DNA from: a virus
Virus record (IMG/VR): IMGVR_UViG_3300046733_001194
Coordinates: 1 to 26,647 of that record
DNA: 26,647 nucleotides
Strand: one strand, 5' to 3'
A program made the translations under genes and the position numbers. How positions within the stretch are numbered: position 1 is the stretch's first letter; each line of letters starts with the position of its first letter. The notes under the pieces were generated by a model. It did not search any database, was not told the DNA's origin, and was given only the letters and a program-made list of their open reading frames with translations. Positions 738 through 26,647 of this stretch are shown in pieces.

Positions 738-1049
<312 letters not shown>

Positions 1050-1496: not shown

Positions 1497-1886
1497 ATGA
1501 CAAGTTATGAAGCATATAAATATTGTGAAAATGTAAAAGATACTAAAGAAATTAGACAATTGATCACTTATAGCGAGGATGCTTATTTATATTGCAGATT
1601 TGTCAAAGACAGGAAGAGTATAAGGAAGTTGATAACTGATAGCAATAATGCTCTTTTGTATTGCAAATATGTAAAAGATAGAAAAAGTATGAGAAAGTTT
1701 ATTACTTGTTGTTTCGTAGCTTATTTATATTGCTTACATTTAAAAGATAGAAAAAGCATGAGAGAGTTAATAACTGGTAGTTTCGAAGCTTTTTTATACT
1801 GCAGATATGTAAAAGATAGAAAAAGCATGAGGAAATTGATAACTGATGATGTTTTAATTTATGGATTAAACAAAAAGGAGAAATAA
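1497..1886 (+). CDS. Protein of five about 23-residue Tyr-Cys repeats
   Basis: A 129-residue protein made of five tandem repeats. Repeat 1 (residues 2-23) has 22 residues; repeats 2-5 have 23 each (DNA units 1566-1634, 1635-1703, 1704-1772, 1773-1841). The consensus is T-x-S-x-x-A-Y-L-Y-C-R-Y-V-K-D-R-K-S-M-R-K-L-I, with an almost invariant Y-C pair and a basic KDRKSMRKLI helix end. Each unit looks like a helical hairpin, so the whole may form a small solenoid. Similar short repeats with a Y-A-R-x-V-I core occur in other phage and bacterial proteins of unknown function. Its 3' end carries AAGGAGAAATAAAA, but no gene follows until the protease leader. Confidence 0.7.
   Translation: MTSYEAYKYCENVKDTKEIRQLITYSEDAYLYCRFVKDRKSIRKLITDSNNALLYCKYVKDRKSMRKFITCCFVAYLYCLHLKDRKSMRELITGSFEAFLYCRYVKDRKSMRKLITDDVLIYGLNKKEK
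1566..1841 (+). repeat. Four tandem 69-nt coding repeats
   Basis: Four contiguous 69-base units (plus a shorter, more divergent first copy upstream) each encode a 23-residue Tyr-Cys repeat. The last four share the KDRKS(M/I)R block with little change, while the 5' half of each unit varies. This points to duplication followed by divergence. Confidence 0.8.
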
Positions 1887-25812: not shown

Positions 25813-26085
25813 TTAATCCTTATTTTTGTATTTCATTAAAACTCTTCTATTGTGCATGCTTATTTCTGAATTAACTTGAAATAAACTATACAAAAATAAT
25901 ATTATACCTATTGGCGATAAAATAAAACTACAAAAAGTTAGTAATATAGCCCATGCTAGTTTTTTTCTTCCAATGTAGAAACAATGACCTCCGAACATTC
26001 CAAAAAAATAAGCTAGTACCCAAGCCGTAGTTTTACTTTTCATTTCTTCTTTCATAAGAATCATATTTATAGCTTCATTATTCAT
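25813..26085 (-). CDS. TM2-domain membrane protein
   Basis: A 90-residue inner-membrane protein. After a 17-residue polar head comes a TM2 domain: helix 1 (about 20-33), the signature G-G-H-C-F-Y-I-G-R (32-40), then a long second hydrophobic region (about 43-70) with a Pro-Ile-Gly turn. The usual TM2 motif is G-x-H-x-F-Y-x-G; here a Cys follows the His, and another Cys (52) lies in helix 2. The frame is open upstream into repeat DNA, but AAGGA 8 bases before the ATG at 26085 sets the start. That ATG overlaps the stop of the Cys-repeat gene (ATGAATAA), so translation is coupled. TM2 proteins have no single known function; they often serve as membrane modules linked to variable partners. Confidence 0.85.
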   Translation of the reverse strand: MNNEAINMILMKEEMKSKTTAWVLAYFFGMFGGHCFYIGRKKLAWAILLTFCSFILSPIGIILFLYSLFQVNSEISMHNRRVLMKYKNKD

Positions 26086-26647
26086 TATCTTTTTCCTTAA
26101 TATTTGAGTGATTAAATTTTGCATATAATCTATTACAGTTATCGCAGTAATCGCAGTAATCGCAGTAATCGCAGCAATCGCAGCAATCGCAGTAATCGCA
26201 GTAATCGCAGTTAAAGCAGTATTCGCAGTACTTGCAGTACTTGCAGTTATAGCAGTCATAGCAGTATTTGCAGTCATTACATTTTTCGCAATTTATGCAG
26301 TTATTGCAGTCATTACAGTTATCGCAGTTATCGCAGTCATTGCAGTTATCGCAGTTATCGCAGTCATTGCAGTTATTGCAGTTATTGCAGAAATAGCAGT
26401 AATCGCAGTAATCGCAGCAATCGCAGTATTTGCAGTTAAAGCAGTTATTGCAGTTATTGCAGTTATTGCAATTATTGCAATTATTGCATTTATAGCATTT
26501 ATAGCATTTATAGCATTTAAAGCAGTCATTGCAGTTATTGCAATTATTGCAATTAAGACAATTAAAGCAATTTATATTATTGACATTGTTTTCTTGAGCT
26601 TTATTAATATTTCCACCATAAAAGATATCAAGGAAATCTTGAGTAAC
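26078..26647 (-). CDS. Cys-x-x repeat protein, 49 cysteines in register (5' end outside window)
   Basis: On the minus strand one frame is open from the window edge to a TAA at 26078-26080: 189 residues without a start, so the gene begins beyond the window. After 26 polar residues (including Q-D-F-L-D-I-F-Y-G-G), cysteine occurs at every third residue for 145 residues: 49 cysteines with no break in register, 45 as TGC and 4 as TGT. Three more sit at x positions, giving 52. The x residues are mainly Asn, Asp, Tyr, Lys, Phe and Glu. An 18-residue polar tail follows. The stop overlaps the TM2 ATG by 8 bases. Such a chain could bind many metal ions or form a cross-linked rod; both are guesses. The repeat DNA is also open as Thr-Ala-Ile (minus) or Ala-Val-Ile (plus), but those frames lack a complete start-stop context. 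Confidence 0.75.
   Translation of the reverse strand, partial: VTQDFLDIFYGGNINKAQENNVNNINCFNCLNCNNCNNCNDCFKCYKCYKCYKCNNCNNCNNCNNCNNCFNCKYCDCCDYCDYCYFCNNCNNCNDCDNCDNCNDCDNCDNCNDCNNCINCEKCNDCKYCYDCYNCKYCKYCEYCFNCDYCDYCDCCDCCDYCDYCDYCDNCNRLYAKFNHSNIKEKDNE
26135..26569 (-). repeat. Degenerate 9-nt tandem repeat encoding Cys-x-x
   Basis: A GCA (43 of the 49 start GCAG or similar) or ACA triplet recurs every 9 bases, 49 times, from 26135 to 26567 (on the plus strand, GCA-GTN-ATN is the commonest unit). Synonymous codons are fixed by position: an Asn in the first x slot is AAT, and in the second usually AAC. That shows copying of whole 9-mers. It is not a CRISPR array: there are no spacers. Confidence 0.9.

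What the first reader, a model, noticed from the sequence alone, without database searches (positions are those of the whole stretch)
26078..26647. Protein with cysteine at every third residue, 49 times without a break
Seen: on the minus strand a frame entering from the window edge reads 26 polar residues, then C-x-x repeated in perfect register for 145 residues (49 Cys plus 3 at x positions), then 18 polar residues and a TAA. No 1- or 2-base indel has survived in 432 bp of repeat DNA. Several units differ in both x codons (EK, IN, YF, LN, KY, YD), yet Cys is always kept as TGC or TGT. The other minus frame (Thr-Ala-Ile) is broken by a TAA and the plus frame lacks a start. Inference: this is a real protein selected for Cys periodicity, with a density unlike ordinary zinc fingers or metallothioneins that I know. 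Possible roles are a multi-metal wire or sink, a disulphide-linked rod, or a redox sponge. The QDFLDIFYGG stretch faintly recalls the Gly/Phe linker of J-proteins, so a J-domain might lie upstream.
Basis: partly seen in the sequence, partly recalled or inferred. Interest (0 to 1): 0.85.

Follow-up and report, generated by a model that had tools for sequence, protein, structure and literature searches.

The report
Hypervariable every-third-cysteine phage repeat protein
This phage gene makes a protein with a cysteine at every third residue, 49 times in a row; it belongs to a widespread, so far undescribed class of capped phage repeat proteins whose repeat number changes very fast and whose repeat block is swapped, under the same end domain, for known rod-forming repeats.

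Summary
In detail: 49 in-register Cys, three extra, no indel. The Cys frame is a real protein. A near-identical phage contig supplies the missing start: no J-domain, but a 46-residue N-cap, then the array, a short tail and a TM2 gene. In IMG/VR the same N-cap, chosen without reference to the array, is followed by Cys arrays of 6-59 units in 43 of 44 loci. In 103 proteins chosen only by C-caps, 2,933 of 2,945 register positions are Cys. Neither Pfam nor NCBIfam covers any part; one PHROG of unknown function does. One C-cap is fused to Cys arrays, pentapeptide arrays, hexapeptide arrays and a leucine-rich repeat, so the Cys array probably plays the same solenoid-like role. Arrays turn over by whole units: two contigs with five point differences in 26 kb outside their arrays have 49 and about 8 Cys units. 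Best model: an elongated rod with an all-Cys core (thiol, disulphide or metal-thiolate) and a fast-diversifying polar surface. The fold and the ligand are not shown. The exact count of 49 could be affected by metagenome assembly.

The parts
26078..26647 (-). Cys-array gene, 5'-truncated by the contig edge (about 20 codons missing by comparison with L127)
   Evidence: ORF with stop TAA; full-length homologues L127:5748-6014, L128:5496-5840, L125:4894-5424, each with AAGGA about 8-13 bases before the ATG
26570..26647 (-). Remainder of the N-cap (VTQDFLDIFYGGNINKAQENNVNNIN)
   Evidence: Aligns with the N-cap family ...NGVSxEFAxxxPxxExDNxTNxGCWNC
26135..26569 (-). (Cys-x-x)n array, 49 in-register Cys
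26081..26134 (-). Short polar C-terminal tail NRLYAKFNHSNIKEKDNE (no C-cap)
   Evidence: identical in L127
25813..26091 (-). TM2-domain membrane protein; its ATG overlaps the end of the Cys gene; neighbour conserved in three related phages
   Evidence: Pfam PF05154 E=2.6e-10

Best explanation
A phage protein of a capped-array family: an N-cap, a block of Cys-x-x tripeptides and, in many members, a C-cap. Shown: the Cys frame is coding, Cys is held almost absolutely, x positions are polar (S, D, G, R, Y, N), and arrays gain, lose and reshuffle whole units far faster than the caps mutate. Inferred: the array folds as a solenoid-like rod in which the every-third Cys points inward and forms the core (thiol stack, disulphide or metal-thiolate), because there is almost no other core-forming residue and because the same C-cap also closes pentapeptide and hexapeptide beta-solenoids. 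The polar outer face, changed by unit turnover, is then the variable binding surface, probably against a host factor in the cytoplasm (no signal peptide was recognised by eye; neighbours are early DNA-metabolism, lysis and membrane genes).
For: Cys retention 2,933/2,945 in 103 proteins chosen by C-cap only. N-cap followed by a Cys array in 43/44 loci, the 44th truncated at its contig end. N-cap dN/dS about 0.25-0.31 between related phages. C-cap B carried by 32 Cys, 13 pentapeptide and 8 hexapeptide proteins and 1 LRR protein; profile-profile probability 99.5-99.6%, E 1e-23 to 1e-25. Pentapeptide gene directly upstream of the Cys gene in the near-identical phage. x residues: 3 Pro, 14 Ala, 31 Leu against 2,242 Ser. 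Caps identical in DNA but arrays reshuffled, with whole-unit changes in 18 of 19 length-changed pairs. Ser at x1 coded only by TCN in 79 arrays and only by AGY in 60, never both, and both kinds under each C-cap: arrays grow from a founder unit and Ser was fixed at protein level more than once. AF2 of the window protein shows beta-bridge-type residues every third position at about 82-127.
Against: AF2 confidence in the array is low (pLDDT about 25-60), one model shows no regular array structure, and no PDB fold match was found. No consistent coil period in x residues. The only PDB sequence hit of note, the beta-helical Tenebrio antifreeze protein (E=6e-4), may reflect Cys composition. The window-type N-cap was found only with Cys arrays, so the swap argument rests on a C-cap that the window protein lacks. 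No binding partner is known.
Confidence: 0.5

Rival explanations
1. A metal-thiolate store or sink (metallothionein-like): the array is unfolded until it binds many Zn, Cu(I) or Fe and protects the infected cell or starves a host enzyme.
For: 49 Cys in 145 residues, CxxC spacing throughout, almost no hydrophobic core residues. Unit number need not be fixed for a sink.
Against: No metallothionein or zinc-finger Pfam match. No metal-handling gene stood out in a Pfam scan of 68 neighbours, top 25 families shown. Does not explain why pentapeptide and hexapeptide repeats sit under the same C-cap, nor the diversified x positions.
Confidence: 0.25
2. A disulphide-linked or redox-active rod or sponge, perhaps assembled after lysis or in the virion.
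For: In the Tenebrio antifreeze protein, the best PDB sequence match, Cys in a tight beta-helix are disulphide-paired (from general knowledge).
Against: No export signal recognised by eye; genes lie among early DNA-metabolism and lysis genes rather than structural ones; the bacterial cytoplasm is normally reducing.
Confidence: 0.12
3. A thiazole/oxazole-modified (TOMM) or other RiPP precursor, with the array as core peptide, like heterocycloanthracin.
For: Heterocycloanthracin precursors have Cys-Xaa-Xaa repeats whose indels are whole Cys-Xaa-Xaa units and can lie far from their enzymes (PMC2674419).
Against: No NCBIfam hit (the library that holds TIGR models). No YcaO in 33 phage records that carry the arrays; controls rang. 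Arrays often sit in the middle, before a folded C-cap, and reach 59 units.
Confidence: 0.04
4. A 9-bp minisatellite or DNA element (iterons, recombination site) whose Cys reading is a by-product.
For: Clear 9-bp tandem repeat; arrays are hot spots of change.
Against: TG of the Cys codon never varies in the window while its third base and the x codons do. Array G+C runs from 25% to 74% with unrelated 9-mers and two Ser codon families. Caps are always in the Cys frame.
Confidence: 0.02
5. The family is real, but the window's 49 units and its junction with this N-cap are a metagenome assembly chimera.
For: The contig ends 78 bases upstream of the array. The N-cap remainder differs at 12 of 78 bases from the near-identical contig G001, which otherwise has 5 point differences outside arrays in 26 kb. 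Short reads cannot safely span 435 bp of 9-mers.
Against: Arrays of 6-59 units occur widely, and cap-identical pairs with different arrays recur in other phages, as true recombination would give.
Confidence: 0.2

Closest known systems
PHROG family phrog_15341 (unknown function)
   Same: Window protein matches at E=6.9e-19; members are Cys-array proteins of related architecture, with 15 matches in one 127-kb phage contig.
   Different: An unannotated cluster with no described function; it does not separate caps from array, and the short-array sister G001 does not ring.
Heterocycloanthracin / TIGR03601 TOMM precursors (PMC2674419)
   Same: Cys-Xaa-Xaa repeats with whole-unit indels, strain-variable length.
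   Different: Different N-terminal sequence (no NCBIfam match), no cyclodehydratase in 33 phage records, 6-59 units instead of about 13, often a folded C-cap after the array.
Pentapeptide-repeat proteins (PF00805) and hexapeptide left-handed beta-helix proteins of phages
   Same: Cap-array-cap layout and a homologous C-terminal cap; a pentapeptide gene adjoins the Cys gene in G001.
   Different: Repeat length 3 instead of 5 or 6; Cys replaces the Leu/Phe or Val/Ile core; no Pfam match of the array.
Tenebrio molitor antifreeze protein (PDB 1ezg)
   Same: Cys-rich tight beta-helix; best PDB profile hit (E=6e-4). From memory, its inward residues come every third position.
   Different: 12-residue TCTxSxxCxxAx coil with an ice-binding Thr face, insect, secreted; motif absent here.
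Metallothioneins
   Same: Extreme Cys content with CxxC spacing.
   Different: No Pfam match, far longer and strictly periodic, with folded caps.

Membership tests
phrog_15341 | Profile match | tested here: met
   E=6.9e-19 over residues 15-111; low-complexity match, so membership says little about function
TOMM / heterocycloanthracin precursor | Leader homology (TIGR03601) | tested here: not met
   No NCBIfam hit up to E=0.5 for the window protein and six relatives or parts of relatives
TOMM / heterocycloanthracin precursor | YcaO/cyclodehydratase encoded in the genome | tested here: not met
   0 of 33 phage records; host enzymes could not be tested
TOMM / heterocycloanthracin precursor | Cys converted to azoles | not testable with these tools
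   needs mass spectrometry
Pentapeptide repeat (PF00805) | A(D/N)LxX repeat, Pfam match | tested here: not met
   0 Pfam families for the window protein
Capped phage solenoid proteins with C-cap B | Shared C-cap | tested here: not met
   The window protein has only an 18-residue tail; Cys-array proteins with another N-cap type (DENNNkW) carry C-cap B
Capped phage solenoid proteins with C-cap B | Array folds as a beta-solenoid | tested here: inconclusive
   AF2 pLDDT about 25-60 in the array, partial every-third beta-bridge pattern; no fold match
Window-type N-cap Cys-array family (defined here) | NGVxxxF...N...CxNC cap directly before the Cys array | tested here: met
   the window holds the second half of the cap, the rest lies beyond the contig edge
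Tenebrio antifreeze beta-helix | 12-residue TCTxSxxCxxAx coil | tested here: not met
   No Thr in the window array; x residues N/D/Y/K/F
Metallothionein | Family profile match | tested here: not met
   0 Pfam families
Metallothionein | Metal binding | not testable with these tools
   needs ICP-MS or spectroscopy
J-domain protein | DnaJ domain (PF00226) upstream | tested here: not met
   0 of 4 related phage records, controls ring in 12 of 14

The most novel reading that the evidence does not exclude
Phages encode a new kind of solenoid, a tripeptide Cys-x-x rod with an all-Cys core, used like pentapeptide and hexapeptide rods as a rapidly reshuffled recognition surface: the array is replaced or resized while both caps stay identical, a diversity generated by unit turnover, with as many as 15 matching places in one phage contig.
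Probability: 0.4. Interest if true: 0.9.

Novelty: new variant of a known kind. Interest (0 to 1): 0.72.

Why it matters
It defines a common but uncurated class of phage proteins that gene callers can misread (in Flavobacterium phage FL-1 the annotated gene is the wrong frame). If the array is a folded rod, it is a new minimal repeat architecture with a core of one residue type, useful for protein and materials design. If unit turnover diversifies a binding surface, it is a simple phage diversity mechanism that can be tested by counting units in phages passaged on different laboratory hosts.

Tried and rejected
J-domain upstream: rejected. TOMM precursor: features not met. Collagen-like and CAG/CTG arrays: many hits of the raw TGY pattern are antisense or out-of-frame readings of these and were filtered by x diversity and caps. 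Phase variation by frameshift: rejected, array changes are whole units in 18 of 19 length-changed pairs. Homology of the CRAGW C-cap to the C-terminal domain of (Gly-x)n phage proteins: tested, not supported (hhalign probability 3.7%). Coil length from x periodicity: inconclusive. Fold searches: nothing beyond the FL-1 cap fragment. tblastn of the window protein in 50,697 phage records: no match, low-complexity filter. The full N-cap alignment was too diverse for a pattern scan; a subset worked. PADLOC: nothing for the window protein or L085. Papers: eight further searches found no description of the phage family; the heterocycloanthracin paper, found, was the only Cys-Xaa-Xaa family found.

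Full report
Observation. The minus ORF 26078-26647 was re-read and is as described: 26 polar residues, (Cys-x-x)48-Cys, 18 polar residues, TAA. In 48 complete 9-base units the TG of the Cys codon never changes and its third base is C or T, while the first bases of the two x codons are non-consensus in 28 and 22 units. A neutral minisatellite would not spare two of nine columns.

Completing the gene. The window is an IMG/VR phage contig of myovirus type: terminase, Phage_portal_3, DUF3383/PHROG tail sheath. A second contig, IMGVR_UViG_3300048504_000503 (G001), is 99.8% identical over window 1-26202 and continues past the edge. There the gene starts MRVFKDYKDFLENKKIGENGVTQDF..., with AAAAAGGA before the ATG. 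Upstream lie a pentapeptide-repeat gene, a LysC-type lysis protein, a Dam methylase and a YqaJ recombinase; downstream is the TM2 gene. Two less close relatives (L128, L125) keep the order Cys gene then TM2. There is no J-domain.

The family. Three or more N-cap types and several C-caps occur; none has a convincing Pfam or any NCBIfam match. The window belongs to the N-cap type xIFKxYxEFLxREDKxxNGVSQEFAxxxPxxExDNxTNxGCWNC. A scan by this cap alone gave 44 loci, 43 followed by Cys arrays of 6-59 units, the 44th truncated. N-cap dN/dS between related phages is about 0.25-0.31.

Selection on Cys. In 103 proteins chosen only by their C-caps, 99.6% of 2,945 in-register positions are Cys, with both TGC and TGT in use; x positions are S, D, G, R, Y, N, and Pro, Ala and Leu are nearly absent. 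Ser at x1 is coded by TCN in 79 arrays and AGY in 60, never both in one array, and both kinds occur under each of the two C-caps. Each array therefore appears to grow from a founder unit, and Ser was reached more than once at protein level.

Swapping of repeats. C-cap B (GSR..TT.Y...VxCGCFxGxLxEF...) was found in 59 loci: 32 with Cys arrays, 13 pentapeptide, 8 hexapeptide, 6 others including one leucine-rich repeat. An isolate example is Bacteroides phage BF766P1, where the cap follows a hexapeptide array. Pentapeptide and hexapeptide repeats are established beta-solenoids, so a Cys array in the same slot is most simply another rod. The window protein itself lacks this C-cap, so for it the inference passes through Cys-array relatives that have it.

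Hypervariability. Between the window and G001 only five point differences lie outside arrays in 26.2 kb. All five indels and the other differences fall in two arrays: the (Gly-x)n gene 738-1049 and the Cys array, 49 units here against about 8 there with one off-register unit. The 78 bases upstream of the array differ at 12 sites, so the junction lies in the array: recombination with another allele, or an assembly chimera at the contig edge. Independent pairs support real turnover: L328 and L336 have identical flanking caps but arrays of 30 and 50 units in different order; 18 of 19 length-changed pairs differ by whole units.

Mechanism. The array offers hardly any core-forming residue but Cys. 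The proposed rod has Cys inward every third residue and polar, diversified x residues outward. AF2 gave ordered caps but low confidence in the array; for the window protein it drew beta-bridge-type residues every third position at pLDDT 52-60, which is suggestive only. The best PDB sequence match is the Cys-rich beta-helix of Tenebrio antifreeze protein, possibly by composition. Whether the Cys are free, paired or metal-bound is unknown. The variable surface suggests a recognition role against a changing host factor; this is inference.

Known relatives. PHROG 15341 (unknown function) holds part of the family. The only described Cys-Xaa-Xaa family found is heterocycloanthracin (PMC2674419), whose leader and enzymes are not found here.

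Limits. Collection scans were capped at 120 rows or 80 loci, so counts are lower bounds. Most sequences are metagenomic, so array lengths may be affected by assembly. No structure, partner or phenotype is known.

Noticed in passing
window 738-1049 (+): A (Gly-x)n dipeptide-repeat protein whose array also differs between the window and the near-identical contig G001; with the Cys array it holds every indel between the two genomes over window 1-26202.
   Followed up: partly
window 1497-1886 (+): A protein of 23-residue repeats (69-base unit, 4.6 copies, KDRKSMRKLITDSNNALLYCKYV), unchanged between window and G001.
   Followed up: no
L102 (contig IMGVR_UViG_3300028572_000010) and L004/L123/L126 (contig 3300037172_000055): One 127-kb phage contig has 15 PHROG 15341 matches and a 41-kb contig has 10; at least nine Cys-array genes lie in 8.8 kb of the first.
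   Followed up: partly
L129 (Flavobacterium phage FL-1, KY421186.2 about 26455-27271): The annotated gene APZ82901.1 is the Ala-Pro frame of a Cys array; the Cys frame carries the N-cap and is frameshifted just before the CRAGW C-cap, so the protein is split into wrong genes.
   Followed up: yes
L127:5159-5761 (+): Pentapeptide-repeat gene directly upstream of the Cys gene, with an almost identical ribosome-binding stretch (AAAAAGGACAAxCAAA) before its start.
   Followed up: partly
L303: C-cap B attached to a leucine-rich repeat (LDLRDTQITALPENLNVGG), a fourth repeat type under the same cap.
   Followed up: no
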